Source: a virus. From it: 24,476 bases of DNA. The stretch covers positions 1-24,476 of IMG/VR virus record IMGVR_UViG_3300045738_000341. One strand, 5' to 3'. The notes under the pieces are model-generated. The model did not search any database. It was given only the letters and a program-made list of their open reading frames with translations, and was not told the origin of the DNA. Both the position numbers and the translations under genes were made by a program. Below, piece after piece: positions 3,887 through 24,476 of this stretch (the first letter of the stretch is position 1; each line of letters starts with the position of its first letter).

Positions 3887-5020
3887 ATGAAAAAACCTAC
3901 CAAAGCATACACATCCTCACTGGATGTAATCCGCTTGGCAATCCTCATTTGTTTTGAGATGACCAAGCAAGGCATCCCGTTGGTTCCTATAGTATGGGGC
4001 CGAGTGGGTTGCGGAAAGTCACAGATGTTTCACCAGATCGCCCGATACCTTGGGTATGAGCTTGTTGATCTGAGAACATCAGACAAAGACCCCACTGATA
4101 TTGGAGGTCTTCCATGCCCTGACACTGACAGGGGTGAGGTTAAATACCTACAGTCATCACTGATGGAGAGAGTACTCAAGCAGTATGACAAGGACGGGAA
4201 CTACATCCCCAAGAAACGCAAGGGATGTCTCTTCCTTATGGATGAGAAGGATCGGTCTACCACTGAGGTGCAGAATGCCACCCTTCAGCTAGACCTAGAC
4301 CGCTGCATCAATGGGCGTGAGCTAGACCCTGATGTCTATGTCTGCGGTGCAGGCAATGCCGACTCAGACATGGGTACTACACCACTGTCATCGGCGGCAG
4401 CTACTCGTCTCATCCACTTCTTTGTGGACACTACGTCCTCCAAGGCGGTGGAGGGATGGCAAGTATGGGCAACCCAAGCTGGGCTACCTGACTGGGCCAT
4501 CGCCTTTGCTGAGGTGCGTAAGGAAATCTTCTGCGGTGAAGAGGTGGAGTACACCGAGGTCACTGAGTGTACGCCCCGCACATTTGAGTGGGCCGTCCGC
4601 ATACAGGAGAAGTGTGAAGAGATTGGCAAGCACGCTGCCCGGAAGGATGTGGTCAAGGCGCTGGTATACGGTGCTATCGGCCAGACTGCTGGTCAGGAGT
4701 CAATAGCCTTTCGCAAGCTGAGGAAGAATGTGCCTGACATTGAGGCTATCATTGCAGATCCAGAAGGCACGCCAGTGCCAAGCATAGACGCCAATGGTAA
4801 GGATGCCTTGGGCATCCTTTACATCACCAAGCAGTTCCTCATTGAGAGGGCTTGGAATGATGGCAGTGAGGACAGGGAGGCAACACGTGCCTTCACCATC
4901 TACGCCAGCCGTTGGCCTGAGGAAATTAAGTCTGCCTTTATGAGAGGCGCTTCCAAGCGCGGACTCACAGTGGCAGGGTTGAAGGAGTATAAAGACTGGG
5001 ACGCAAGCAAGGCTGCTTAA
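3887..5020 (+). CDS. MoxR-type AAA+ ATPase
   Basis: 377 aa. Walker A is GRVGCGKS (38-45), Walker B is CLFLMDE (114-120), sensor 1 is AGNAD (155-159), and an arginine-finger candidate is R174 in AAATRLIHF. This order is typical of MoxR/CobS-like AAA+ chaperones, which use ATP to remodel partners carrying a von Willebrand A domain. The VWA partner is two genes downstream (5969), so the three genes form a module. Phage N4 also encodes a neighbouring AAA ATPase and VWA protein. The start follows AAACGCTAC rather than a Shine-Dalgarno. The substrate is unknown. Confidence 0.9.
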   Translation: MKKPTKAYTSSLDVIRLAILICFEMTKQGIPLVPIVWGRVGCGKSQMFHQIARYLGYELVDLRTSDKDPTDIGGLPCPDTDRGEVKYLQSSLMERVLKQYDKDGNYIPKKRKGCLFLMDEKDRSTTEVQNATLQLDLDRCINGRELDPDVYVCGAGNADSDMGTTPLSSAAATRLIHFFVDTTSSKAVEGWQVWATQAGLPDWAIAFAEVRKEIFCGEEVEYTEVTECTPRTFEWAVRIQEKCEEIGKHAARKDVVKALVYGAIGQTAGQESIAFRKLRKNVPDIEAIIADPEGTPVPSIDANGKDALGILYITKQFLIERAWNDGSEDREATRAFTIYASRWPEEIKSAFMRGASKRGLTVAGLKEYKDWDASKAA

Positions 5021-5035
5021 TACTGTCACAGTATA
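5019..5035. promoter_or_regulatory. 17-bp palindrome, copy 8
   Basis: AATACTGTCACAGTATA, one base off. The stop TAA of the AAA+ gene (5018-5020) overlaps its left end. It is 27 bp before the ATG at 5062, so the second gene of the module could be transcribed separately from the first. Confidence 0.85.
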
Positions 5036-5061
5036 ACATTAAAGAGAAAGATAAACGCTAC

Positions 5062-5967
5062 ATGACTGATACTAATAGTTCACTGAAGAGGTTTAATGAG
5101 AATTGTTTGCTCGTTAAAATCGCCACTGGTCTTCCGGGCCAGACGTACACATCCAAGCAGGCATCAAATGATGCCGCTATGGTTAACCGTGCCGACAAGA
5201 GCAGGATCAAGACTAGCCTGCTCAAGTTCACCAACGCAGACCTCAAGCCTGTACGCTTTGAGAGGGACACCGCCAAGGCGTTGCTCTTTGCAGTGTCAGT
5301 GCCTTGGGATAAGGAAGGAAGGCGCATCATCCAAGTGACAACCTACCAGAACATAATCACCAGACTGCGTGATCATCGGGCTAGGTTCTTTGACGCAAGG
5401 GACAGGTTCATTGCGGGGTACACCAACAAGGTGAACCGTGCATCAAGGGACTTGACCCACTTGTTTGAAGCAAGCCGCTTCCCCTCTGCTGAGGAGGTAG
5501 GCAACCAGTTCTCCTTTGAGATAGAGACTGAGTCTATCACTGACCCGGAGGACATCCGCATCAAGGGCAGCCTTGAGTTGGTGGAAGAGGTGAAGCTTGA
5601 GATGGAACGTAAGCAGATTCGTAAGCTCAATGAATCCAAAGATGACATTGTCTCCCGGCTCACTGAGCGGATCAAGACTAGCATCGGCTCCATCAGGAAC
5701 TTCCATGAGAAGACAGCCAAGGGAGAGGACACTAAGTTCTTTGAGTCTGCACTGACAGGTATCACTGCACTGTGCAAGTGCCTGCCTGATCTCAACATCA
5801 CAGGTGATGCAGACATCGCCAACTTTGGCCAGAAGATTCAGAAGGAACTCGGATACATGGACGCCGAGTTGATCAAGGATTCTCCTGATGCCAGAGAGAT
5901 AGCCATCAACGCTGGAGACAGCATCCTTGATGCACTTGAAAACTACAGCCCCGATAAGTTCGCATAA
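5062..5967 (+). CDS. middle protein of the MoxR-VWA module, coiled-coil rich
   Basis: 301 aa. No motif is decisive. After a mixed N-terminal 60 residues the protein is mostly helical, with charged coiled-coil-like stretches at about 95-125 (NIITRLRDHRARFFDARD) and 175-225. There is one Cys cluster (CKC, about 236). Proteins encoded between a MoxR ATPase and a VWA protein in other phages and plasmids are often annotated DUF3150; I infer that relationship from position and helical character, not from a recognised motif. It is probably an adaptor joining ATPase and VWA partner. The leader shares ATAAACGCTACATGA with the AAA+ gene. It ends TAA-C-ATG, so the next gene is almost certainly coupled. 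Confidence 0.8.
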   Translation: MTDTNSSLKRFNENCLLVKIATGLPGQTYTSKQASNDAAMVNRADKSRIKTSLLKFTNADLKPVRFERDTAKALLFAVSVPWDKEGRRIIQVTTYQNIITRLRDHRARFFDARDRFIAGYTNKVNRASRDLTHLFEASRFPSAEEVGNQFSFEIETESITDPEDIRIKGSLELVEEVKLEMERKQIRKLNESKDDIVSRLTERIKTSIGSIRNFHEKTAKGEDTKFFESALTGITALCKCLPDLNITGDADIANFGQKIQKELGYMDAELIKDSPDAREIAINAGDSILDALENYSPDKFA

Positions 5968-5968
5968 C

Positions 5969-7384
5969 ATGAACAACATCATACAGTTCAACACTGGGCT
6001 ATCGCCCAAGGAAAAGATCAGTCATGCCCACGACTACCTGCATGAGGAACATCCCATTGGGATACCGTTCCTCTCCAAGTGGAAGGTTGTTGAGGATGAC
6101 GCCATACCTACAGCCTGCACCAATGGTGTGACGCTGAGGTACTCACCAGCATGGATAGGCAAGCTGCCTTCCAATGTTGTTAAGGCCGTCGTACTGCATG
6201 AGGTGGCCCACGTTTTGTTCGGCCATCAGTTGCGGCGTGGTTCCCGTGACCCAAAGTTGTGGAACATCGCAGCCGACCTCGCCATCAACTCTCACCTTGA
6301 GCCTTGGTATAAGGAGCTTGGGGTTCTGAGTGAACTAAAGAAGGATGGCATCGCCGCTGGTATCTTCCCGCTTGAGGGCAAGTACCTAGAGTTACCTCCC
6401 TGCAAGTCAGCCGAGTGGTACTATGAAAGGGTTGTTGGCCTCGTCAATGAACCTGACCAACCGGAAGAGGGTGAGGAAGGCGGCGGCAAGGGTGAGCAGG
6501 GTGAAGGCCAAGCTGATCCCCCGGATGGAGCCATCACCGATCCCGGCCCAACAGGTGAGGGTGGAGGCAAGGCCGACTCTAAATCTGAAGGAGAGGAAGA
6601 GTTCCAAGAGCGCATCAAGGATTTCCTTGGTGATGACTATGACAAGCCCGGATTCGGAGACATTGAGGATTCACCGGAAGCATCTGATGATCCCATTGAG
6701 GCTGAAGAAGACTGGAAAGAGATGGTATCTGATGCCGTTGTTCTCCAGAAGGCACAAGGCAAGGGACTCGGCAAGGGTATGGACATCCTTGAAGATCATG
6801 TCAACAAGCGTGCCAACAATGGCTGGGCCATACTCAGGCAGTGGGTTACCAAGCTCTCCATCGGAGGGTACACTTGGAAGCGTCCCTCCCGTAGGCATGG
6901 CTGGAGAAAAGGTATAGTCCTGCCCAACAACCGCACCAAGAACAAGACCTCTGGTGTGGTGATACTGGATACGTCAGGCTCTATGGGAAGGAGTGAATGC
7001 GACGAGGCCATGCGTCAGATAGATAGAATCTGTCGGGAGTACGGCAGCGCCGAGGTTACGCTTGTTCAGTGTGACACTATTGTCCATGAGGAAGCGGTGA
7101 AGAAGTTCACCAAGGCAGACTTCCCTCTGAAAGTTCCAGAGGTTTGGTTTGGGCGTGGAGGTACAGAGATGTACCCCGCCATCAACTGGGTAGCCAAGAG
7201 GGCAGCACAGTTTGACTGGTGCATACTTGTTTCGGATATGTATTGGGAAGTGATGTGGACTCCAGAGGATGTGCCTCACACTGGTGTACCTACGGTGTAC
7301 CTTGGTGTGAACACCGACCCTGAGCAGACAATCAAACCAGACAACCCGCAGACGCATTACATTGCGGTGCAAGTAGCCGCATAA
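5969..7384 (+). CDS. HExxH metallopeptidase-like plus von Willebrand A protein (DUF2201-like)
   Basis: 471 aa from ATG 5969, one base after the previous stop. An upstream in-frame ATG lies within the preceding gene and is unlikely. The N-terminal domain carries HEVAHVLFGH (77-86), a zinc-metallopeptidase type HExxH helix, as in DUF2201 proteins. An acidic, glycine-rich low-complexity linker spans about 165-230. The C-terminal VWA domain has the MIDAS motif DTSGSMG (about 334-340), a Gly-Gly-Thr loop (GRGGTEM) and a late Asp (LVSDMYW). The family usually works with a MoxR ATPase, here at 3887. Whether the peptidase site is active cannot be told from sequence alone. Confidence 0.87.
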   Translation: MNNIIQFNTGLSPKEKISHAHDYLHEEHPIGIPFLSKWKVVEDDAIPTACTNGVTLRYSPAWIGKLPSNVVKAVVLHEVAHVLFGHQLRRGSRDPKLWNIAADLAINSHLEPWYKELGVLSELKKDGIAAGIFPLEGKYLELPPCKSAEWYYERVVGLVNEPDQPEEGEEGGGKGEQGEGQADPPDGAITDPGPTGEGGGKADSKSEGEEEFQERIKDFLGDDYDKPGFGDIEDSPEASDDPIEAEEDWKEMVSDAVVLQKAQGKGLGKGMDILEDHVNKRANNGWAILRQWVTKLSIGGYTWKRPSRRHGWRKGIVLPNNRTKNKTSGVVILDTSGSMGRSECDEAMRQIDRICREYGSAEVTLVQCDTIVHEEAVKKFTKADFPLKVPEVWFGRGGTEMYPAINWVAKRAAQFDWCILVSDMYWEVMWTPEDVPHTGVPTVYLGVNTDPEQTIKPDNPQTHYIAVQVAA

Positions 7385-7715: not shown

Positions 7716-8245
7716 GTGAATTAAATAAATTAGTAATCAAAGCATACCATGTTGCAGAGCAGGCCCACCGTGGGCAGACCAGAAAGTATAGCGGTGATCC
7801 ATTCATCGTCCATCCTGTACGGGTATCGTACAGGGCAGTGGCCAATGTCGGTTGGTCTCCAAGGTACACTGACGTACAGGTTGTGGCTCTGCTGCATGAC
7901 ACCATTGAGGACACTGACACTACCGTTGAGTCTTTAAAGGAGGACGGCATGGGAGGTTGGGCTGATGTGGTGGATGTGCTGACGCACAAGCCTGATGTCA
8001 CTTACTTTGACTACATCAGAAGCATACGTAAGTACGCTGAAGACAATGACGGTGACCACTGGAAAGACAACACCGCCATCCTCGTCAAGGTGGCCGACAT
8101 CATGGACAACATGAATGATATGCCGCCGCTCGACAAGCGGACTAAGTCACACGCCCCGGCCACTCGACGATCCCCGGCACGCGGATGGCACTCATTAGAC
8201 AAGCGTTACCGAAAGGCGCTGGAGATATTGGGGGAAGAGCTATGA
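7712..8245 (+). CDS. HD-domain hydrolase, MESH1/SpoT-like ((p)ppGpp or related nucleotide)
   Basis: 177 aa, a single HD domain. The pattern AH-x-GQ-x-RK..GDPFI-x-HP (residues 18-35), LLHDTIEDT (60-68) and KVADIMDNM (126-134) matches the hydrolase domain of RelA/SpoT and the standalone MESH1 enzymes. The expected metal ligands are all present: His34, His62, Asp63 and Asp129. Members remove the 3' pyrophosphate of ppGpp or act on similar nucleotides. No synthetase or TGS/ACT domain is present. In a phage it could blunt the stringent response or an alarmone-type defence. Substrate is inferred from the family. The start is at the ATGA overlap; the stop overlaps the next gene in the same way. Confidence 0.83.
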   Translation: MSELNKLVIKAYHVAEQAHRGQTRKYSGDPFIVHPVRVSYRAVANVGWSPRYTDVQVVALLHDTIEDTDTTVESLKEDGMGGWADVVDVLTHKPDVTYFDYIRSIRKYAEDNDGDHWKDNTAILVKVADIMDNMNDMPPLDKRTKSHAPATRRSPARGWHSLDKRYRKALEILGEEL

Positions 8246-9291
8246 CTAAGTTAAACGACAAACAAAGATTAGAAAGAAGGAAGCTGAAGAAGAGGTGCAA
8301 CGTGTGTGGTAAGGATATGTTAGCTTACCACACCAAGAGGCTAAATAAAGTGATGAGTTATTGCAGTTACGGGGCTAAGAGTTGTGAGATGGAGGGAAGG
8401 GTTCAGCAACAAAAAGAAAGCCCTAAGTATGAAGCGCACCTAGAGAGGTGTAGACAGAGGACAAAAGAAAACCAAAAGAAAATACACGGCAGGGATTGCG
8501 TCCAGTGTGGTGAATGGTTTGAGTTTACCATCGGCGTGAGAACATACCGGCAGGTCAGCAAGTCAGAAGCAGTAGCCAAGACTGGCTCAAGGGATTGGGG
8601 TGGAAGGGTAGAGAAGTCCGTCCCGTTTATTTATTCATCACAGAAATACTGCAACAAAAAATGCTATGACATGGCCATGCGTATAGCTGCAAAGAAGTGG
8701 GCAAGGCCGCTTGCGGTTAAGGTAGAAGGGGTGTGCCATCGCCCCGGATGTTCAAACATTTTCACTACCACAAAAGGGAGGCTTGAGAGGAGTCACCGTC
8801 CAAAAAAATACTGCTCCCAAGATTGTTCCGTAAAGCACTACAGGGAACTACACCCGGAGATGGTAGAGAAGAACTACCTAAGACACCTCAACAGAATGAG
8901 GAACAACCGTGAGGCCCAACTAAAGAGAAACACCTATATGAGGCTGATCAGAAAAACCAATCCGTCTTACGCGGTAGCCTGCCGCTTGAGAGGCAGGGTA
9001 AGAGGCGCACTAATGGATGCTGGCCAGAAAAAGAGATTGTCCACTGCGGAATTAGTAGGCTGCTCCTTCAAAGACTTGGTGATTCACATTGAATCAAAGT
9101 TCACGGTGGGCATGGACTGGGATGTGTTCCTCAACTCTAGAGGCGGCATTCACATAGACCACATCACGCCGTGCGCTGCCTTTGATCTAACCAAGGAAGA
9201 GGAACAGCGTGAGTGTTTTCATTGGTCAAATTTACAGCCGCTATGGGCGGTTGACAACATGAAGAAGGGAAAGAAAATATACACACCATGA
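8242..9291 (+). CDS. HNH endonuclease with three zinc-finger pairs
   Basis: 349 aa from ATG 8242 (ATGA overlap; an earlier in-frame ATG lies within the upstream gene). Three Cys clusters suggest zinc fingers: Cys19/22 with 41/48, Cys86/89 with 137/141, and Cys165/170 with 191/195. After a basic helical region, the HNH nuclease site is HIDHITP (304-310) with Asn330 (HWSNLQPLW) and Asn339 (DNMKKGKK). This is the common phage free-standing HNH (homing-type) family. It sits inside a chain of ATGA overlaps, so it does not obviously interrupt anything. Its last codons share 18 identical bases with the leader of the gene at 10566. Confidence 0.9.
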   Translation: MTKLNDKQRLERRKLKKRCNVCGKDMLAYHTKRLNKVMSYCSYGAKSCEMEGRVQQQKESPKYEAHLERCRQRTKENQKKIHGRDCVQCGEWFEFTIGVRTYRQVSKSEAVAKTGSRDWGGRVEKSVPFIYSSQKYCNKKCYDMAMRIAAKKWARPLAVKVEGVCHRPGCSNIFTTTKGRLERSHRPKKYCSQDCSVKHYRELHPEMVEKNYLRHLNRMRNNREAQLKRNTYMRLIRKTNPSYAVACRLRGRVRGALMDAGQKKRLSTAELVGCSFKDLVIHIESKFTVGMDWDVFLNSRGGIHIDHITPCAAFDLTKEEEQRECFHWSNLQPLWAVDNMKKGKKIYTP

Positions 9292-10100
9292 ACAAAGCAA
9301 AAGTAAAGCTAGATAAGGACTTGCTCAAGGCGAGTTCAACAATGACAGATCACCAAGCTAGATTCTTGGTGGATACCTACTACCAGATGCAGGACGCAAG
9401 GATACGTAGTTCTGCACAGGTGCGTGGGCTTGAGGAAGAAGCCGAGCCATCCGAGGTGATGACATGGGTTGGGGAGATCAACCTGTCCTTGGAGGAGAAC
9501 ATCAAGAAAGCCTTGGGCAAGTATGCGCTTGGGCATCCCATAGGTAAATGGTCTATGGGCATCAAGGGCATTGGGCCTGTCATATCCTCTGGACTACTTG
9601 CCTATGTTGACATCACCAAGGCTCCAACCGTGGGACACATATGGCGGTTTGCTGGCCAAGACCCCACATCAGTATGGAACAAGGGCGAGAAGCGACCTTG
9701 GAATGCCAACCTCAAGACGTTGTGCTGGAAAATGGGCGAGTGCTTTGTGAAGACCAAGAACAAAGATGAGGATATTTACGGCAAGATTTACGAGGAACGT
9801 AAAGTCTATGAGGTTGAGAAGAACGAGCGGCTTGAGTACAAGGATCAAGCTGACGCCGGGGCCAAGCGCGTTGATAAGAAGACCAAGGCGTACAAGTCGT
9901 ACATCATAGGAAAGTTACCAGATGGTCACATTCATGCGAGGGCCAAGAGGTACGCGGTAAAGCTGTTCCTGTCACACTGGCATGATGTGGCTTACCGACA
10001 CCACTACAAGCAAGCACCGCCCCTGCCCTACCCCATTGCACACATGGGGCATACACACTTTAGGCCAGCACCTTTGGTGGCTCCAAAGAAGGTGGCCTAG
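9288..10100 (+). CDS. helix-hairpin-helix protein related to the IS110/IS116 transposase C-terminal domain
   Basis: 270 aa, ATGA overlap with the HNH gene. Residues 88-110 read MGIKGIGPVISSGLLAYVDI, a helix-hairpin-helix, followed by GHIWRFAGQDP. This order resembles the Transposase_20 domain of IS110-family recombinases (GIGP..A..L..iGd..F....A.aGL.P). No N-terminal DEDD catalytic domain is evident: residues 1-85 are helical. The C-terminal half is basic and ends with a His-rich stretch (KLFLSHWHDVAYRHHYK). The HhH points to DNA or RNA binding. It lies directly before the 36-bp array, so array binding is a fair guess, but nothing shows it. Confidence 0.7.
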   Translation: MNKAKVKLDKDLLKASSTMTDHQARFLVDTYYQMQDARIRSSAQVRGLEEEAEPSEVMTWVGEINLSLEENIKKALGKYALGHPIGKWSMGIKGIGPVISSGLLAYVDITKAPTVGHIWRFAGQDPTSVWNKGEKRPWNANLKTLCWKMGECFVKTKNKDEDIYGKIYEERKVYEVEKNERLEYKDQADAGAKRVDKKTKAYKSYIIGKLPDGHIHARAKRYAVKLFLSHWHDVAYRHHYKQAPPLPYPIAHMGHTHFRPAPLVAPKKVA

Positions 10101-10103
10101 CAA

Positions 10104-10535
10104 ATACGAGTCAATGACAAGAAGGGAACCAACGCTGTCGAACGAGTCATCACAAGTGAGAGAACCAAAGCTCCGAAACGAGTCATTTGACACGAGAGAA
10201 CCATCAGGGCCGAACGAGTCAATAGAAGAGAGAGAACCACTGAGTGCGAACGAGTCATACACCGAGAGAGAACCATGTATATGGAACGAGTCAATCTTAA
10301 CGAGAGAGCCAAAGTAGATGAACGAGTCATACACAGAGAGAGAACCAGATATATGGAACGAGTCATAAGTTCCGAGTGAACCAAACAGGACGAACGAGTC
10401 AGGCTGCCAGAGAGAACCACAATCCAAGAACGAGCCAATGATTAAGAGAACACCATTAGTTTTGAGCGAGTCAGCCAGCGAGAGAGAACCACGAAGAGAG
10501 AACGAGTCATTGAGAAAGAGAGTACCAATCCTCTT
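10104..10535. repeat. 36-bp periodic array: two 10-bp motifs alternating every 18 bp, 12 units
   Basis: Each 36-bp unit is GAACGAGTCA, 8 variable bases, GAGAGAACCA, 8 variable bases. The first motif starts at 10104 and every 36 bp to 10500; the second starts 18 bp later each time. The spacing is exact across all 432 bp while spacers differ almost fully (only the units at 10248 and 10320 are near-copies). Units 1, 10, 11 and 12 are degenerate, and a decayed half motif follows at 10536. The two motifs share GANNGANNCA, so an 18-bp ancestral repeat is likely. It begins 3 bases after the gene at 9288 ends and stops just before the ribosome site of the next gene. I know no element with this pattern. 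Confidence 0.92.
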
Positions 10536-10565
10536 GAGCGACATAAAGAAGGGAAAGAAAATAGC

Positions 10566-10910
10566 ATGAGTAATATGGATATGTATACAGTTAAGCTGCA
10601 TACTTCGGCGTCGGAGCTAGGAGAGTTGATCTCCTTGGCTGGAACAATGCGTAACACTACCGTAGTGTCCGCCAACAAAACCAATGGTGATGGAAACGGC
10701 ATCACCAAGGCATCACCTAAAAGGGAGTCAGCCCCTGACCCCCGGCTGGTGTACCGCGACATGGGTGACGGCACTAAGCGCATCAACGTGGATGAGTCCT
10801 TGCGTAATCTCGGCTTGGACATGGACTGGTTGCTGGCTAATAAGACCAAGCTAGGCACGCCTGAGCATTCAGTGAAGATGTCCTTGGCGCGGAGCAAGGA
10901 TAAGGAATGA
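10566..10910 (+). CDS. unknown phage protein
   Basis: 114 aa. The start follows AAGAAGGGAAAG, a purine-rich ribosome site. No family is recognised. Residues about 30-55 are Asn/Gly/Lys-rich and likely disordered. The C-terminal half contains DPRLVYRDMGDGTKRINVDESLRNLGLDMDWLL, which looks like a small folded alpha/beta unit. If transcription starts upstream of the 36-bp array, its mRNA would carry the whole array as leader. It overlaps the HTH gene by ATGA (10907-10910). Confidence 0.75.
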   Translation: MSNMDMYTVKLHTSASELGELISLAGTMRNTTVVSANKTNGDGNGITKASPKRESAPDPRLVYRDMGDGTKRINVDESLRNLGLDMDWLLANKTKLGTPEHSVKMSLARSKDKE

Positions 10911-11350
10911 GCAAGAGCCTTTACCCTGTTGAGGCTGTGGCCACATGGATCAAGCGGGTTAAGACCGCCCATGCTGGTGGCCTGCTCAGTGATAAAGAGA
11001 AGGTCGTCCTCCTTAAACGGGAGGACGGCTATACTCTCACCAGCATTGGAGTAGACATGGGGGTGTCCAAGCAAAGGGTTGCCCAACTGTTTGAGCGGGG
11101 TAACAAAATTGTAAGGACAGGTCATCGCCCAAAGAGAGGAAGGCCAGCGTTTATGCCAGAAGAATATGTAGTAAAACTCACACAGAGACAGAAGGAAGCA
11201 CTGCGTAGCAAGGGCATTAGGAGAATGATCTTGGAGGCAGAGACCAAAGACCATCCATACTGGACACATTGTCTGGTTGACCTGCTTGATCAGGTCGCGG
11301 AACAAAACAACACAGAAACAAACGTAAAGAAGGAAGGAGAACTACTGTAA
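10907..11350 (+). CDS. sigma region 4-like helix-turn-helix protein
   Basis: 147 aa. Residues about 27-66 read SDKEKVVLLKREDGYTLTSIGVDMGVSKQRVAQLFERG. This is the arrangement of a sigma70 region-4 HTH (DGYTL..IG..MGVS..RV.Q), used to contact -35 DNA. No sigma region 2 is present, so it is not a full sigma factor. It may be a regulator or a sigma-like adaptor for phage transcription. The basic segment KRGRPAF (about 76-82) is AT-hook-like. The C-terminal 50 residues are charged and lack a recognisable fold. It is ATGA-coupled to the gene before it. Confidence 0.72.
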   Translation: MSKSLYPVEAVATWIKRVKTAHAGGLLSDKEKVVLLKREDGYTLTSIGVDMGVSKQRVAQLFERGNKIVRTGHRPKRGRPAFMPEEYVVKLTQRQKEALRSKGIRRMILEAETKDHPYWTHCLVDLLDQVAEQNNTETNVKKEGELL

Positions 11351-12310: not shown

Positions 12311-12967
12311 ATGAGATACGATCCGAATAACTACGAAGACGTAGCCACTAGGCTACAGCGCATCCACACAGCCAACCCCAAGCTAAGGGTCTTAACAAAG
12401 ATTGCTTGGCATGATGACGAGTTCAACAAGGTATGCTTTAGGGCGTCCTTAATGGAGGGCGACACCGTGCTGGCCACGGGTTTCGCTATGGACTGGAAGG
12501 CAAAAGACAGGGGCGCTACTACTACCAACTGGGTTGAGACAGCCGAGACATCTGCCATAGGTAGGTGCATAGCTAACAGTAAGTATCAGGACAAGAACGC
12601 AGAGCGTCCGTCCAAGCAAGAGATGGAAGTTGCTGCCAGCAGGGCAGCCAAGCCTGAAGCCAAGCCTGAAGCCAAGCCTGAAGCCAAGCCTGAAGCCAAG
12701 CCTGAAGCCAAGCCTGAAGCCAAGCCTGAAGCCAAGCCTGAAGCCAAGCCTGAAGCCAAGCCTGAAGCCAAAGTATCCCCGCTCAAGGCCAAGCTGGCTC
12801 TGATAGTGGGGAAGAATTATTGGGCGGTGAACGGGTTCCTTACCGGACGGGGACACATCAAAGAAGGCCAGACATACATGGATGTGGCTGATGATTATGC
12901 TCAGTCTATTGTTAACTACCCGGCAAAGTTTCTTGCCATAGCCGTCTCTAACAATGCTAAAAGATAA
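12311..12967 (+). CDS. putative single-strand annealing or ssDNA-binding recombination protein with (KPEA)10 linker
   Basis: 218 aa. The N-terminal domain (1-110) contains NWVETAETSAIGRCIANSKYQ, matching the ETSA-x-GR-x-LA motif seen in phage ERF/annealing-type and ssDNA-binding proteins; the call rests mainly on this and on the neighbouring nucleases. Residues about 113-152 are ten copies of KPEA, a stiff charged linker, encoded by ten identical 12-bp repeats. A small C-terminal domain of about 65 residues follows. In phage recombination such a protein coats single strands produced by an exonuclease, here probably the next gene, and anneals them. It overlaps that gene by 14 bp. Confidence 0.65.
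   Translation: MRYDPNNYEDVATRLQRIHTANPKLRVLTKIAWHDDEFNKVCFRASLMEGDTVLATGFAMDWKAKDRGATTTNWVETAETSAIGRCIANSKYQDKNAERPSKQEMEVAASRAAKPEAKPEAKPEAKPEAKPEAKPEAKPEAKPEAKPEAKPEAKVSPLKAKLALIVGKNYWAVNGFLTGRGHIKEGQTYMDVADDYAQSIVNYPAKFLAIAVSNNAKR
12647..12766 (+). repeat. ten perfect 12-bp tandem repeats
   Basis: The unit GCCAAGCCTGAA is repeated ten times with no mismatch, encoding the (KPEA)10 linker. A decayed partial unit follows (GCCAAAGTATCC). Perfect identity implies recent expansion by slippage or recombination, so copy number probably varies between isolates. Confidence 0.97.
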
Positions 12968-18574: not shown

Positions 18575-21500
18575 TCATTCGTCTGGGACAACTGGAATTG
18601 CTCCCCTCATCAGCCGCGACCCACCGTATCCCCTAGATGTGGGGCTTACCCCGCGCCTCATCTTCTCTGGCTTCACTTTATCTTCTTCACTGAAAACCCC
18701 GTTTTTTACCCCAGCGTCTTCGTAAAACTCCTCAAAGTTATCTATCACCTTCATTGCTTCCGTATGCCAATCGCGTACCCACGGCCACTTGTTGTTCTCC
18801 CAGTTGGCTGCCTTCCTGTGAAACTCCTCCCGCGTCAGCTTTTTGTCTAGTCCCCAGCCAGTTGGGGACATTCTTTTTATGTCGGCATTCACTGCCCGTT
18901 GGGCAGCGTCTTCGTCAAGTATCTCCGGGTACTCCGGGGATGTGTAAGTTTTAATAAGCTCCGAGTAATGATCCCACGCAGTGTCCATGTCACCGAGGGC
19001 AACAGCCCTCTGCCATTTCTTAATGCGGTCATACGCTGGGTCAATGTTGTCCAACTGTGCCTCCAGTGTCTGCCCCTTGTATCTTTTTACATCATCAAGC
19101 GGGAAGAAACTTCTAATGCCGTTCACGGCGTTATCAAACTTCACCCTTCCGGGGTCAATGAACTGGTCAACTACCTTGTAGACCGGAGCCATCTGCCTTA
19201 TGAACCTGTCCCCCCCGTATTCCAATGAGCCTGTCTGCCCTACCTCTATACCGAAGCGTACTATCGCCTCAGATTTTGACATGAGCCAACTGCCGGGGTG
19301 CATTGCGGCCCTCATCCTGCCCTCATTTAACATGGACTCAAACCAAGGGCCAAGCAGTGGGATGGAGCTAACACTCATGGAAACCCAAGCCTTAAACTTG
19401 TCTCCTTCTAGTTCCTTGTCCCAAGGATACCCCTTTGATGGCTGCCGCCCGTAGACAAAGTAGTTGTACAACCCTATCAGAAAAGCCGCTATCAGTGCAG
19501 ACGGTACGGTTGCCATCAGGAACGAAAGGAGAAGTATGAAGTCGGCCAGTATTGATACGCTTATATCACCCTTGGTTCCCTGCCTGCTCCTTGTAAGCAG
19601 GAAGGAGTGTCTTCCTACGTTTTGCAGCGCGTTCACACCCCAACCCATGAGGGTAAATATAAAATTGTAGAGCTGATCCAGCTTGATTCCAGCAGGTCGG
19701 TTGCTTGGGGTGGCTGCGTTGTGAAGGGTTACAATGCCCTCGGCAACACGGTTCCTTTGTTGGTCATTCAAGAACCTCACAGTAGACTTGTCTTCTGCCA
19801 AGTCCAGTTGTTGCAGGAAGCTCCTCGCCTCTGCTTGGAAGTTAACAACACCGCCCCTTGATAGCATACTAAGCCCCTCATTAAAGGAGGCTTTGTTTGC
19901 CCTCATTAATCCAAGGTACGCCCCCAACAACTCCTCCTCTGTTATCTCCTCTGATAAATCCTCCCCTGCATCCATCCTCCTTTTGTATACCGTTCTTAAC
20001 CTTTCCTCTATCCGCTTCAAGAAAGTGTCCCCTATTGCCATGAGGTGAAGGTTGCTTCCTATGTCCCCCATGCGCGGAAACACAGTGCGGCCAATCATCG
20101 CCTGCATTGCCTCTATCTCTCCCCATGCCGCCCTTATTGACCGTACAGATTCTTGGACTAGTGGCGTGGTGCTATCAAACTCTCTCACCCCACGGCCAGC
20201 AGTTGACAGGTCTCCTTGAAATGACCGCTCGGTTTCAGTTGGTGTGACTGGCATCCCAAGCCCAGCCTCATGCAACAGCCTGTACTCATGGATGCGTAGT
20301 GGCATATGGACAACCAACTCCTCCACCAGTGGGGCCATCATCCCACGAAACGGGGCTATGGCCTTGTCTATCCCTTTGGCGTTTCGGATACCCTCAACAA
20401 ACATGGGTAATGACTTCAAAATTGAATCAGGAGCAGACCAGTTCCACTTAACCTTCTTCACCTTCTTCCCCTCCACCGTCTCACTTGTCCTTATGTCCAA
20501 GCCGATGGAATATTTCAGAAGGGATGCCGCTGCTGCCCCCCCCATCTTGCTGACCATCATTGGAAATCTTTTAAGAAGGCCCATTGCAAAAGCCTGTGTT
20601 CCGCTCTGCCCTTGTGCAAACGCCAGTGACAGCCCCCCGATAACATTGGCATCAATTGCGTTCCTAACAAGTGGGCCACCAGTCAACAGCGTAAACCCTA
20701 TCAGTGACTTGCCGAACCTTATGATGATGTTGGGGGCAACCTCCTGTTGTTGTTCTGCGCTCTGTGTTCCATGCGCCTTCTCATAGGTGTTTACATAACT
20801 CCTTAGCTTGCGCCCCCAGTAGCTTAGTTGCGCGTGTGGTGGGTGGAAGGCTTCCCCTTCCTTCACCTCAAGCTTCATCTCCTTGGCCACCTGCCTTTGA
20901 ACCCTCCTGTGGGTGTGCTTTAGCCCCGGCTTTGTTTCGGTTGGGCCGAACTTCGCCCCCGGTTCTGTAAGCTGCCTAGCCCTCTCGTCTGCCTTGTCAC
21001 TTAGGGATTGCAACTCCTGCTCCATTGACTTGAGTCCAGAGATTACATTTTGCAAAGCTCTTCCGCTGCCAAGGATGGCAAATCTCCTGAGGTCAAACGT
21101 GCTGTTGAATCCATACTGGTAGAAAAAGTACGGGCCTATCTCTGCCCCTCTGGCCTTTGCAAACGGCCCCTCTGCGGCATAACTGTGGTATCCCGTGGTT
21201 GGGTCACCGTCTTTATTCGGCAACACGTTTCCCTCCAATGAGTTTAGTATCTTGCCATACTCTTCCAGTATATAGACCTTGATGTCGCCGGGGGGGTTGT
21301 CGGTTCGCGAGGCTATCAACTCTACAATCTGCTCGGTAGTTAAAGGCTCTTTGCTTTGTGAAACCTCTTCGGCCACTATGTTGTACACAGCTTCAAGCGG
21401 ACTCCGCGTAGTAAACAGTGGGTTCCTGTCCACCAGAAACGCATAGAGGGCTTCCGGTCTTGACAAAAACAAAGCATCAAAGTCTTTTGGTGTTAGCGTT

Positions 21501-24476
21501 GTTCTTTCGCCGTTCCTGTCCTTCAGATCTTTCCAAGCTTGGACAAGCTTTCTTCCCTCTTCACTGAACACACGCGGGAGGAATGTTTTTCCCTTGGACA
21601 GTGGCATCCTGACTATGGACTTGCTTTTGCCCGGACGCTTGATGATGTAATCAGGGGTCATTGAATTATCTATGCCCCCAAGGTTCTTGTTGTAGTCGTA
21701 AGCTTCTGTGGTTATGTCCCCTTCAAATTTCAAGAAGGCCATGTCTGCCTTTGTGACTTGCTGGCCACTGCCTGTAAATTCCCCTTCCCTTAGGTTCCGG
21801 CCCCCTTCTTGGTGTGATGCCCTGAGTTCATTTCCGATCACCTTGTTCCACTCCTCCAGTATCTTCTGCGTGGACTCGCCAGACAAACGGGACACTAAGC
21901 CGTGACTCTTTGCCGCAGCCACTGCCATGTTCTTCCACTTGTCCTCATACTTTGCAGCCCATGTTGCCATCCTGTTAAAGTACAGGTTGTGTTTACGCAC
22001 CAGTTGCTTGACCACTTCAGAGGATCGCAGTGGGAGGTTGAGCAACATCTGATCCATGACAGACCAGTATGTTTTCTGGAACAATGTCCTTACGTTCTGC
22101 GCCGGGTGCATCACCATCTCGGACAAGAATATATTATCAAGCGCAGACTTCCACGCAACGTAGTAGTCATAGTACAACGCGCTGGAGTCATTTATCCTGA
22201 GCCACTCTTCAATTGCCGTCATCGCTTCTGACATCTTGGCAAGTTCACCCCAGCCCTCTGTGCTGGACAGGAACCTGACCTTGATAAGCTTGCTTGGCTT
22301 GCCTTTAACGCCGGGGACGGGAACCTTCAACGTGTTCTGCTCATACTTGTCGGGCATCACAGCGTCTTCAACTTTCCTCTTGCCGTTCTCCATCCATACA
22401 AACGTCGGGGTTTCAATTGCGTTCGTGTGCTTGGTCAGCAACGCAAGGTGGTTCTTTATCTCCGGGTCATTGAGGAATTTTTCCACCACCTTTGCGGCAT
22501 CATAGTGGGCCTGCAATGAGAGCAACTTATCGTTAACTAATTTGTAATGCTTCTGGAAAATGAGGCGCTTCTGTTCTGCCTTCTTGGAGTAGTCCGTCAC
22601 CAGCCTGACCGCCTTGGCTATGGCCTTGTTCTTTACTTCTGTCTTCTGGTTCTCAACACCTGAGATAAGTTCCTGCGCCAACTTGCCAATGCCCTCTGTG
22701 CCTATCCTGTCGGCAAACACCAGAGCCAATGCGTTCTCCTTTAAGCTGTGGTTGGCGGCCAACAATCCTGCTGCCATTCTCCACTGCTTGTATCTCTTGT
22801 CCCCCTCTGGTGGCAGCGGCGGGATTGTAACCCCCTGTGTCGCAGCCATGTTGGCCTGCGTCCTCTCATATCTATACTGTTCCAGTATAGCGTCAGCCAG
22901 TGCAACCACATCTCTGGCAGTGGCGTTGACGTTTGTGTTCAGAAGTTTTGTACCTTTGGCAGTCCGCGTAATCATTCGCGCAATCTGTATTGCCTTGCCC
23001 TTTATGTTGGCCGGGTTTCCGTACTCCTCAACAGCCGTGTCCATGTCCTCCGCTATTGTTGCCAGCACACCGAGGCTTCTTATGTCTGTCTCTGTTGAAC
23101 TCAAGGCAAGCACGGCAACCCTTAGCTGTGTCTCTGCCTCTCTTTGGATGTGGGAATGTAGGGCTTCCTCGTCAAACTTCTCGGAAGCAAGGGCCATCAT
23201 CTTCCTGAATGACTCGCCCTCTATCTCCTTGGCCATGTCTTCTGCCCGCCATAAAACCCAATCAAGCTGGTAATGTAACTTCTTATAAAATTCCAATGAG
23301 ACTTCAGCCATTGCAGTTGCAAGGTCTGGCCTTTCCTCTGCCATGTATTTGTCGTGCAGCGCCTTGTAGTCCCTGATCTTTACTCCGTTCTCGTCAAGAA
23401 CCTCACCGATCTCCCTGACTAGCTTAGATTTTAACAGGTCATGTGCGTTTTTAGACAGGTCTTTCGGTATGTGTTTTTTTAGTATCCTGTCTACTTCATT
23501 AATGGCTGCCGCTGCTTGGTTAAGTAAAATCTCCTTCCTCCTAAACTTATCTGTCAGGACTACACCTTCTTTCTTACCCCTGCCCGCCAACCTTTCTATC
23601 TCTAAGTCTTTCCTTAGTTGGGCCGCGCTTCCAAGTGACCTGATGTGGCCTGAGTTAATTGCATCCCTTACCAGCAAGCCTCCCGGTCTGGCAGCCCTGT
23701 TGAAGTCCAGCCCCTTGCCAGTCTTCAGCATCTTGCTGACCTCCCGAAGGAACCTTCGGCGCTCGGCACGCTCACTCACTGATTGGGATACCTTTATGTA
23801 TTTGTTGTTTAGTATCGCCCCCAGTATATCCAACATGACATTCCCGAAGCGTTTCATAAGCGGGTCTGTCCTGTTCTTAACCAGTTCCCTAGCAAAAGAT
23901 TCATCCGGGTTGATCACCGGATAGACAAGGTCAATTAATTCATTGAGGTTCTTTGCCTCGCCTTCGGTTATGGAGCCTGAGATTGCACTGCTTGGGTCAA
24001 GGGAGAACTCACCGTTGTTGGCAACGGATGACTTGACTTGGTTGCTGTCAAACACCGCTATGTTTTTGCGGTTATGCTCATTGACAAAGTAGGAATCAAA
24101 CCCAGCATACTTAATGAAGCGCGTAAACTTCTCAACCACATCCCAGTTGTTGGCCTCCAGTGACTTCCCTTTAGTGTAGCCTTCTGTTTCTGCCAGTCTT
24201 GAGTCACTTGCAGCCTCAAGTATTTGGTCTAAGTGCTTCACCTTTTCCACAGCAAAGCTTCCCCCAAGTCTTTCAAGAGCCTCTGAAATTCTGGCAGACT
24301 GCTCTTTGTATGCGGCAACCTCCTCTGCTATCTCCTCCTTGGTTAGCCCCTCCTCCTCAAGCTGTTTTTCATCTGGCTTGGCTTGGTAGTTAAGTACGTC
24401 CTTTAACCTAGCATCAGAACTCCACGCCTTGCTTTGATCAACTTCGCCAAGCAAGTACTTTACGTCCGCTTCTGCT
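18575..24476 (-). CDS. giant virion-type / large polyvalent protein (partial, N-terminus beyond window)
   Basis: At least 1966 residues are visible. The frame stays open to the window edge, and the first possible start inside it is only a TTG at 24454, so the true start is outside. Most is helical and charged. Two hydrophobic regions stand out, at about 1245-1285 (LIGFTLLTGGPL..NVIGGLSLAFAQG) and 1630-1668 (DFILLLSFLMATVPSALIAAFLIGLYNYF). Motifs such as MHPAQNVRTLFQ (about 785) and the long helical C-terminus resemble large polyvalent or internal virion proteins ejected with DNA. I see no single-subunit RNA polymerase HDS motif in this part, nor any clear protease or methyltransferase site; such domains could be in the missing N-terminus. 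Confidence 0.85.
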   Translation of the reverse strand, partial: AEADVKYLLGEVDQSKAWSSDARLKDVLNYQAKPDEKQLEEEGLTKEEIAEEVAAYKEQSARISEALERLGGSFAVEKVKHLDQILEAASDSRLAETEGYTKGKSLEANNWDVVEKFTRFIKYAGFDSYFVNEHNRKNIAVFDSNQVKSSVANNGEFSLDPSSAISGSITEGEAKNLNELIDLVYPVINPDESFARELVKNRTDPLMKRFGNVMLDILGAILNNKYIKVSQSVSERAERRRFLREVSKMLKTGKGLDFNRAARPGGLLVRDAINSGHIRSLGSAAQLRKDLEIERLAGRGKKEGVVLTDKFRRKEILLNQAAAAINEVDRILKKHIPKDLSKNAHDLLKSKLVREIGEVLDENGVKIRDYKALHDKYMAEERPDLATAMAEVSLEFYKKLHYQLDWVLWRAEDMAKEIEGESFRKMMALASEKFDEEALHSHIQREAETQLRVAVLALSSTETDIRSLGVLATIAEDMDTAVEEYGNPANIKGKAIQIARMITRTAKGTKLLNTNVNATARDVVALADAILEQYRYERTQANMAATQGVTIPPLPPEGDKRYKQWRMAAGLLAANHSLKENALALVFADRIGTEGIGKLAQELISGVENQKTEVKNKAIAKAVRLVTDYSKKAEQKRLIFQKHYKLVNDKLLSLQAHYDAAKVVEKFLNDPEIKNHLALLTKHTNAIETPTFVWMENGKRKVEDAVMPDKYEQNTLKVPVPGVKGKPSKLIKVRFLSSTEGWGELAKMSEAMTAIEEWLRINDSSALYYDYYVAWKSALDNIFLSEMVMHPAQNVRTLFQKTYWSVMDQMLLNLPLRSSEVVKQLVRKHNLYFNRMATWAAKYEDKWKNMAVAAAKSHGLVSRLSGESTQKILEEWNKVIGNELRASHQEGGRNLREGEFTGSGQQVTKADMAFLKFEGDITTEAYDYNKNLGGIDNSMTPDYIIKRPGKSKSIVRMPLSKGKTFLPRVFSEEGRKLVQAWKDLKDRNGERTTLTPKDFDALFLSRPEALYAFLVDRNPLFTTRSPLEAVYNIVAEEVSQSKEPLTTEQIVELIASRTDNPPGDIKVYILEEYGKILNSLEGNVLPNKDGDPTTGYHSYAAEGPFAKARGAEIGPYFFYQYGFNSTFDLRRFAILGSGRALQNVISGLKSMEQELQSLSDKADERARQLTEPGAKFGPTETKPGLKHTHRRVQRQVAKEMKLEVKEGEAFHPPHAQLSYWGRKLRSYVNTYEKAHGTQSAEQQQEVAPNIIIRFGKSLIGFTLLTGGPLVRNAIDANVIGGLSLAFAQGQSGTQAFAMGLLKRFPMMVSKMGGAAAASLLKYSIGLDIRTSETVEGKKVKKVKWNWSAPDSILKSLPMFVEGIRNAKGIDKAIAPFRGMMAPLVEELVVHMPLRIHEYRLLHEAGLGMPVTPTETERSFQGDLSTAGRGVREFDSTTPLVQESVRSIRAAWGEIEAMQAMIGRTVFPRMGDIGSNLHLMAIGDTFLKRIEERLRTVYKRRMDAGEDLSEEITEEELLGAYLGLMRANKASFNEGLSMLSRGGVVNFQAEARSFLQQLDLAEDKSTVRFLNDQQRNRVAEGIVTLHNAATPSNRPAGIKLDQLYNFIFTLMGWGVNALQNVGRHSFLLTRSRQGTKGDISVSILADFILLLSFLMATVPSALIAAFLIGLYNYFVYGRQPSKGYPWDKELEGDKFKAWVSMSVSSIPLLGPWFESMLNEGRMRAAMHPGSWLMSKSEAIVRFGIEVGQTGSLEYGGDRFIRQMAPVYKVVDQFIDPGRVKFDNAVNGIRSFFPLDDVKRYKGQTLEAQLDNIDPAYDRIKKWQRAVALGDMDTAWDHYSELIKTYTSPEYPEILDEDAAQRAVNADIKRMSPTGWGLDKKLTREEFHRKAANWENNKWPWVRDWHTEAMKVIDNFEEFYEDAGVKNGVFSEEDKVKPEKMRRGVSPTSRGYGGSRLMRGAIPVVPDE
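22873..22889. promoter_or_regulatory. weak palindrome match inside the giant gene
   Basis: TATACTGTTCCAGTATA has perfect 7-bp outer arms but breaks the consensus near the centre. It is the only match in the - strand half and lies within codons for ILEQYRY. It is probably a coding coincidence. Confidence 0.25.

What the first reader, a model, noticed from the sequence alone, without database searches (positions are those of the whole stretch)
10104..10535. Strict 36-bp array with two alternating 10-bp motifs and variable 8-bp spacers
Twelve units and 24 motifs show no spacing error over 432 bp although the spacers have diverged. So either spacing is functional or units were laid down with new spacers. 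Unlike CRISPR, constant blocks are 10 bp and spacers 8 bp. Unlike iterons, 18 bp is not a whole number of helical turns, so successive motifs face different sides. 18 and 36 are multiples of three, and one - strand frame stays open as a hexapeptide repeat, xxx-(D/G)-S-(F/L). Options: a centromere or replication site for the adjacent HhH protein, an RNA decoy in the leader of the next gene, or an antisense solenoid protein.
Basis: partly seen in the sequence, partly recalled or inferred. Interest (0 to 1): 0.85.

Follow-up and report, generated by a model that had tools for sequence, protein, structure and literature searches.

The report
Phage-borne TIGR guide-RNA array with TasA
The regular 36-bp array is a TIGR array, a recently described phage-carried store of paired short guide sequences used by the protein encoded next door to find DNA; it is a new member of a known system, but comparing it with about a hundred relatives gives new hints about how such guides evolve and what they target.

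Summary
The array is real: 12 units and 24 motifs at 10104-10535, with no spacing error in the window. It is a TIGR (Tandem Interspaced Guide RNA) array, and the gene just upstream (9288-10100) encodes its Tas protein. That protein scores 203 bits against NCBIfam TIGR_Tas_endo (cut-off 100). Its predicted fold (pLDDT 90) matches TasH at Z 20 but lacks the HNH part, so it is the nuclease-less TasA type. The repeats are of the kind found in Salicola phage CGphi29 (SpTIGR, 8-nt spacers).

Comparison with 117 distinct arrays (about 3,500 motifs): (1) 28 of 28 clean indels are whole 36-bp units and 27 start at spacer A, so the A-loop-B guide is the inherited unit. (2) Homologous guides differ in a way that fits synonymous change in a protein-coding target read as A + reverse complement of B (P = 0.001; control pairing P = 0.6; suggestive only). 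(3) Here tasA plus array is a clean insert at the 3' end of an HNH gene, flanked by a 23-bp direct repeat; an uninserted HNH relative is known. An antisense protein is refuted. No target was found in 2.7 Mb of phage DNA; the target and function stay open.

The parts
10104..10535 (+). TIGR array: 12 units of edge repeat (GAACGAGTCA) - spacer A (8 nt) - loop repeat (GAGAGAACCA) - spacer B (8 nt); each predicted to give one 36-nt tigRNA (mid-edge to mid-edge)
   Evidence: architecture as defined in PMC12045711
10104..10113 (+). first edge repeat, 5' degenerate (ATACGAGTCA), as is typical of the start of TIGR arrays
   Evidence: PMC12045711
10536..10541 (+). 3' truncated terminal edge repeat (GAGCGA)
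   Evidence: PMC12045711
9288..10100 (+). tasA: solo Nop-domain Tas protein, 270 aa, no nuclease domain
   Evidence: NF052498.1 203 bits vs cut-off 100; TasR 9mty 1.3e-17 and TasH 21kl 6.8e-14; AlphaFold model pLDDT 90 aligns residues 18-266 to TasH 65-309, Z 20
9251..9278 (+). sigma-70-like promoter match (TTGACA-16-GAAAAT, 10 of 12) upstream of tasA; consensus match only, number found equals chance
9257..9279 (+). left copy of 23-bp direct repeat (ACATGAAGAAGGGAAAGAAAATA), 3' end of HNH gene
10541..10563 (+). right copy of 23-bp direct repeat (ACATAAAGAAGGGAAAGAAAATA), 22 of 23 identical, 1284 bp from the left copy
9280..10540 (+). inserted cassette (tasA + array) between the two direct repeats
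   Evidence: window 8254-9279 and 10541-10576 match one continuous stretch of L062; tasA homology to G042 starts at 9283
8185..9291 (+). HNH-type endonuclease gene (zinc-finger-rich, C-terminal HNH-like motif) into whose 3' end the cassette is inserted; not conserved next to other tas genes
   Evidence: HNH assignment by eye, no Pfam family reached its cut-off
10566..10910 (+). next gene (114 aa, unknown); homologues at 38% lie downstream of the array in G010 and G035

Best explanation
A TIGR-TasA system carried by a phage. Shown: the array has TIGR architecture, its neighbour is a Tas protein without a nuclease, and arrays of this repeat type sit with this protein in nearly every phage where the motif was found. 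Inferred from the published family: the array is transcribed, probably with tasA, and cut in the edge repeats into twelve 36-nt tigRNAs (GAGUCA - A - GAGAGAACCA - B - GAAC). A TasA dimer holds one tigRNA by the matching GA...YCA boxes of edge and loop. Spacer A pairs with one DNA strand and spacer B with the other over 16 contiguous bp, opening and bending the target. Inferred function: because TasA has no nuclease, it most likely blocks transcription or replication at its targets. The comparison of guides suggests the targets are conserved protein-coding sequences outside the carrier phages, in the host or a rival element, with guides kept matched as the targets drift at synonymous sites. The tasA-array pair moves between phages as a cassette. 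The confidence given is for the identity (TIGR-TasA system); the silencing role is about 0.5 and the coding-target reading about 0.45.
For: Tas identity: NF052498.1 equivalog at twice its cut-off, TasR/TasH by profile, fold Z 20 to TasH and 18 to TasR, then IS110-type recombinases at Z 13. Array: repeats close to those of SpTIGR (AAGCGAGYCA/AAGACAACCA, 8-nt spacers). Co-occurrence: 42 of 44 array-bearing records encode the Tas protein. Unit of inheritance: 28 of 28 clean indels even, 27 of 28 starting at A. Coding targets: synonymous test, 60 clusters of guides, observed 38 vs 13.5 +/- 7.4, P = 0.001, control B-A pairing P = 0.61; examples Y-T-D-I-Y (window and G042) and P-T-A-Y with variation at positions 1,4,7,10,13 only. 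Guide reuse: 5 of 12 window guides recur within 3 of 16 mismatches in other phages' arrays, 0.9 on average for shuffled pairs. Cassette: TasA 90% but DnaB 50% identical in G042, and TasA 68% but DnaB 56% in G010; insert flanked by a 23-bp repeat with an uninserted relative.
Against: No RNA, binding or processing data exist for this locus. No target was found: composite 16-mers are not enriched over shuffled pairs in 2.7 Mb of carrier and other phage DNA, and pattern scans of IMG/VR show no single target family. The synonymous signal depends on the cluster threshold: at most 3 differences gives P = 0.001, at most 2 gives P = 0.08, and the plain codon-phase test is weaker (P = 0.03 to 0.05). No + strand terminator follows the array, although TIGR arrays typically have one.
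Confidence: 0.95

Rival explanations
1. Split TasH: the overlapping upstream HNH gene (8185-9291, 4-bp ATGA overlap with tasA) supplies nuclease activity in trans, so the system cuts DNA.
For: The two genes overlap and are probably co-translated; TasH proteins carry an HNH domain fused to the same Nop domain.
Against: No HNH relative was found in any of the contigs carrying a tas relative, and HNH relatives at 79% occur without tas or array. The junction looks like a secondary insertion of tasA into the HNH 3' end.
Confidence: 0.05
2. DNA-binding array (centromere, iteron or origin) bound by the 9288 protein.
For: Regular spacing and an adjacent nucleic-acid-binding protein.
Against: The protein belongs to an RNA-guided family. 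Iterons do not explain paired inheritance of spacers A and B or reuse of spacers by other phages.
Confidence: 0.02
3. Antisense hexapeptide-repeat (solenoid) protein on the - strand.
For: A 209-aa - strand ORF spans the array in the window.
Against: The motifs contain no stop in that frame, so openness over 24 short spacers is not surprising. Of 71 distinct arrays of at least 400 bp, 63 have no open - frame, and 51 have spacers that are not 8 nt.
Confidence: 0.01
4. A rival only to the coding-target part: the variation between homologous guides is random mutation within arrays and says nothing about targets; the synonymous pattern is a statistical fluctuation.
For: No target found; the signal weakens at a tighter cluster threshold and several test variants were tried.
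Against: P = 0.001 against permuted columns, nothing with the control pairing, and several clusters are purely three-periodic.
Confidence: 0.35

Closest known systems
SpTIGR-TasH of Salicola phage CGphi29 (HQ634153)
   Same: Dual repeats of nearly the same sequence (AAGCGAGYCA/AAGACAACCA) and 8-nt spacers; same Nop-type protein; phage-borne
   Different: The Salicola protein is TasH with an N-terminal HNH domain; the window protein starts after it (aligns to TasH 65-309). Salicola's array ends in a terminator, the window's does not. Protein identity is only 29%
TIGR-TasA systems (e.g. FpTIGR of Flavonifractor plautii, PMC12045711)
   Same: Solo Nop-domain protein plus dual-repeat array
   Different: FpTIGR spacers are 9 nt by the paper; the window's are 8 nt
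TaTasR (PDB 9mty)
   Same: Nop fold, Z 18, sequence E 1e-17; tandem-spacer array
   Different: TasR has an N-terminal RuvC nuclease; window protein does not
IS110-family recombinases with bridge RNA (IS621, ISCro4)
   Same: Nop-like RNA-binding part, Z 13
   Different: No DEDD RuvC-like domain (alignment starts at IS621 residue 125) and an array instead of one bridge RNA
CRISPR arrays
   Same: Interspaced repeats that encode guide RNAs
   Different: Two alternating 10-bp repeats, 8-nt paired spacers, no Cas protein among the window proteins tested

Membership tests
TIGR-Tas | Nop-domain Tas protein encoded next to the array | tested here: met
   NF052498.1 203 bits, cut-off 100; TasH fold Z 20 over 221 residues
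TIGR-Tas | Two alternating 8-12-nt repeats with short spacers, about 36-nt unit | tested here: met
   10-bp edge and loop repeats, 8-nt spacers, 36-bp unit; 8-nt spacers (16 nt in all) are published for SpTIGR
TIGR-Tas | Box D and box C ends shared by edge and loop repeats | tested here: met
   Both repeats start GA and end YCA, nearly invariant in 12 units
TIGR-Tas | Truncated edge repeats at both ends of the array | tested here: met
   ATACGAGTCA at 10104 and GAGCGA at 10536
TIGR-Tas | Rho-independent terminator after the array (described as typical, not as defining) | tested here: not met
   Only - strand terminator-like sites in 8000-11000
TIGR-Tas | Array processed to 36-nt tigRNAs bound by Tas | not testable with these tools
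   needs RNA sequencing
TIGR-Tas | Spacers A and B of one unit act as a pair | tested here: met
   Evolutionary test only: 27 of 28 clean indels delete or add A-B units; biochemical pairing not tested
TasH or TasR subtype | N-terminal HNH or RuvC nuclease domain fused to Nop | tested here: not met
   Model residues 18-266 align to TasH 65-309 and TasR 110-322; only 17 residues lie before that
IS110 transposase | DEDD catalytic domain and IS110 family score | tested here: not met
   NF033542 12 bits vs cut-off 140; alignment to IS621 starts at residue 125
CRISPR-Cas | One repeat type and Cas genes | tested here: not met
   Two repeat types; no PADLOC hit in 9 window proteins

The most novel reading that the evidence does not exclude
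In this clade TIGR guides are kept matched to conserved protein-coding genes of the host or a rival element, following synonymous drift of the target; phages sharing little but the cassette carry guides against the same sites. A nuclease-less TasA would then be a mobile, multi-guide gene silencer that spreads between phages as a tasA-array cassette.
Probability: 0.45. Interest if true: 0.78.

Novelty: new member of a known kind. Interest (0 to 1): 0.5.

Why it matters
TIGR-Tas was described in 2025; its discoverers list the origin and natural targets of spacers, array growth and the role of nuclease-less TasA as open questions (PMC12045711). This window and its relatives bear on three of them. 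Arrays change by whole A-B guides plus point changes. Guide variation looks like that of coding DNA, which says where to look for targets. The window holds an insertion of a complete tasA-array cassette, and an uninserted counterpart of the site is known. If the coding-target signal holds, the natural target can be searched for by codon-aware comparison.

Tried and rejected
Target search in carriers: exact and near-exact composite targets (A + rcB, rcB + A, gaps -3 to 8, control pairings, shuffles) show no enrichment in 1.2 Mb and then 2.7 Mb. IMG/VR scans for three guides gave scattered, mostly unrelated contigs. One guide pattern was absent from the Propionivibrio, Halomonas and Acidobacteriaceae genomes that carry related arrays. 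Peptides implied by guide clusters are not over-represented in carrier proteins. A family-wide search was not run because a locus id is not accepted as a centre. A DnaB alignment search meant to bring in close array-free relatives returned mostly distant phages. The first structure model with 8 sequences was poor (pLDDT 51) and was replaced by one with 44. No Rfam family in the window. Antisense protein, iteron or centromere, and CRISPR readings were considered and rejected as stated.

Full report
OBSERVATION. From 10104 to 10535 there are 24 ten-base motifs at exact 18-bp steps, alternating GAACGAGTCA and GAGAGAACCA; 15 are perfect, 6 have one and 3 have two mismatches. Two repeat finders see the 36-bp period. 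The 28-bp motif pair matches five times forward and never in the reversed control. The window is an IMG/VR virus record of 24,476 bases.

IDENTITY. The exact motif pair occurs in 47 stretches of IMG/VR, and 42 of 44 such records also encode a relative of the 9288-10100 protein. That protein hits the solved TasR (9mty) and TasH (21kl) by sequence and scores 203 bits against NCBIfam NF052498.1 TIGR_Tas_endo, cut-off 100. A model from a 44-sequence alignment (pLDDT 90) finds TasH and TasR as its only strong matches, then IS110-type recombinases. It aligns from residue 18 to TasH residue 65, so the nuclease domain is missing: it is the TasA type. The paper that defined the family (PMC12045711) describes alternating 8-12-nt edge and loop repeats, short spacers A and B, 36-nt tigRNAs and truncated end repeats. 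The window has all the sequence features except a terminator. The closest characterised array, in Salicola phage CGphi29, has nearly the same repeats and 8-nt spacers.

WHAT RELATIVES SAY ABOUT THE ARRAY. A second scan with the loop-N8-edge pattern gave 107 stretches; all loci together hold 117 distinct arrays and 3,538 motifs, some with over 80 motifs. Most spacers are 8 nt, but 51 of 71 longer arrays have at least one of another length, and 63 of 71 have no open - strand frame. This rules out an antisense protein and shows that the strict spacing is a strong tendency, not a law. Between homologous arrays, 28 distinct gaps flanked by identical spacers were scored. All have an even number of spacers, and 27 begin at spacer A. 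The thing gained and lost is therefore edge-A-loop-B, the tigRNA, as the tandem-spacer model predicts.

DO GUIDES TRACK CODING TARGETS? In the published geometry a target reads A followed by the reverse complement of B (orientation worked out here from the 8-nt 3' overhangs and the C-5 rule in PMC12045711; inference). Clusters of guides within three differences were compared column by column. Their differences are more often synonymous in one frame than when columns are permuted (60 clusters, observed 38, null 13.5 +/- 7.4, P = 0.001), while control pairs (B with the next A) give P = 0.61. Clear cases are TACCAACC|GCATACAC, with changes only at positions 1, 4, 7, 10 and 13 counted from 0 (P-T-A-Y), and the window's units 5 and 7 with a unit of G042: TAC ACC GAC ATA TAC, TAC ACA GAC ATA TAT, TAT ACT GAC ATA TAT, all Y-T-D-I-Y. 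Caveats: the result depends on the cluster threshold (P = 0.08 at two differences), the plain phase test is weaker, and several variants were tried. I treat it as suggestive. Five of the twelve window guides recur within three mismatches in other phages' arrays, against 0.9 for shuffled pairings.

TARGETS NOT FOUND. Composite 16-mers are not enriched in carrier or other phage DNA, scans of IMG/VR for three guides show no common target family, and one guide tested against three bacterial carrier genomes had no match. So self-targeting and targeting of close carrier relatives are unlikely as the main use; host genes or other elements remain.

MOBILITY. Tas identity does not follow the rest of the genome: G042 shares 90% TasA but 50% DnaB with the window, G010 68% TasA but 56% DnaB, and many carriers share only TasA among the window proteins tested. 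At the DNA level the match to G042 starts 5 bp before the tasA start codon and covers tasA and array. In the window the cassette sits in the last codons of an HNH gene. The HNH relative L062 runs without interruption where the window has 9280-10540, and a 23-bp stretch (9257-9279, 10541-10563) is doubled around the insert. HNH relatives were not seen in the tas carriers, so a split TasH is unlikely. Related tas genes lie in four bacterial genomes; the Halomonas, Acidobacteriaceae and Propionivibrio ones have arrays of this kind beside them.

MECHANISM. Shown: TIGR architecture, TasA protein, paired inheritance of A and B, cassette insertion. Inferred from the family: transcription, 36-nt processing, dimer binding and two-strand pairing. 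Inferred here: silencing rather than cutting, and conserved coding targets outside the carriers.

VERDICT. A new member of a known kind, with comparative evidence that bears on open questions of that kind.

Noticed in passing
9257-9279 and 10541-10563: 23-bp direct repeat flanks tasA plus array; L062, an HNH gene relative, carries the uninserted version. The mechanism of insertion is unknown.
   Followed up: partly
12646-12771: Perfect 12-bp tandem repeat (10.5 copies) encoding (KPEA)n inside gene 12311-12967.
   Followed up: no
3887-7384: MoxR-like ATPase and VWA-type gene pair, conserved in order in several TIGR-carrying relatives (G007, G010, G028, G035, G042); names by eye, not by a family hit.
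   Followed up: no
18575-24454 (-): Single 1959-aa open reading frame on the - strand, not identified.
   Followed up: no
L075 12536-12830: In G007 an extra open reading frame lies between tasA and the array, while the close relative G028 has them adjacent.
   Followed up: no
L197, L209, L223, L233: Some loci carry two separate TIGR arrays.
   Followed up: no
L035 5839-7407: TIGR array of 87 motifs (about 43 guides), far longer than the 5 to 15 units described as usual.
   Followed up: partly
L194 9738-9953: Array next to tas in Candidatus Propionivibrio aalborgensis holds two guides differing by one base, separated by one unit, like units 5 and 7 of the window.
   Followed up: partly
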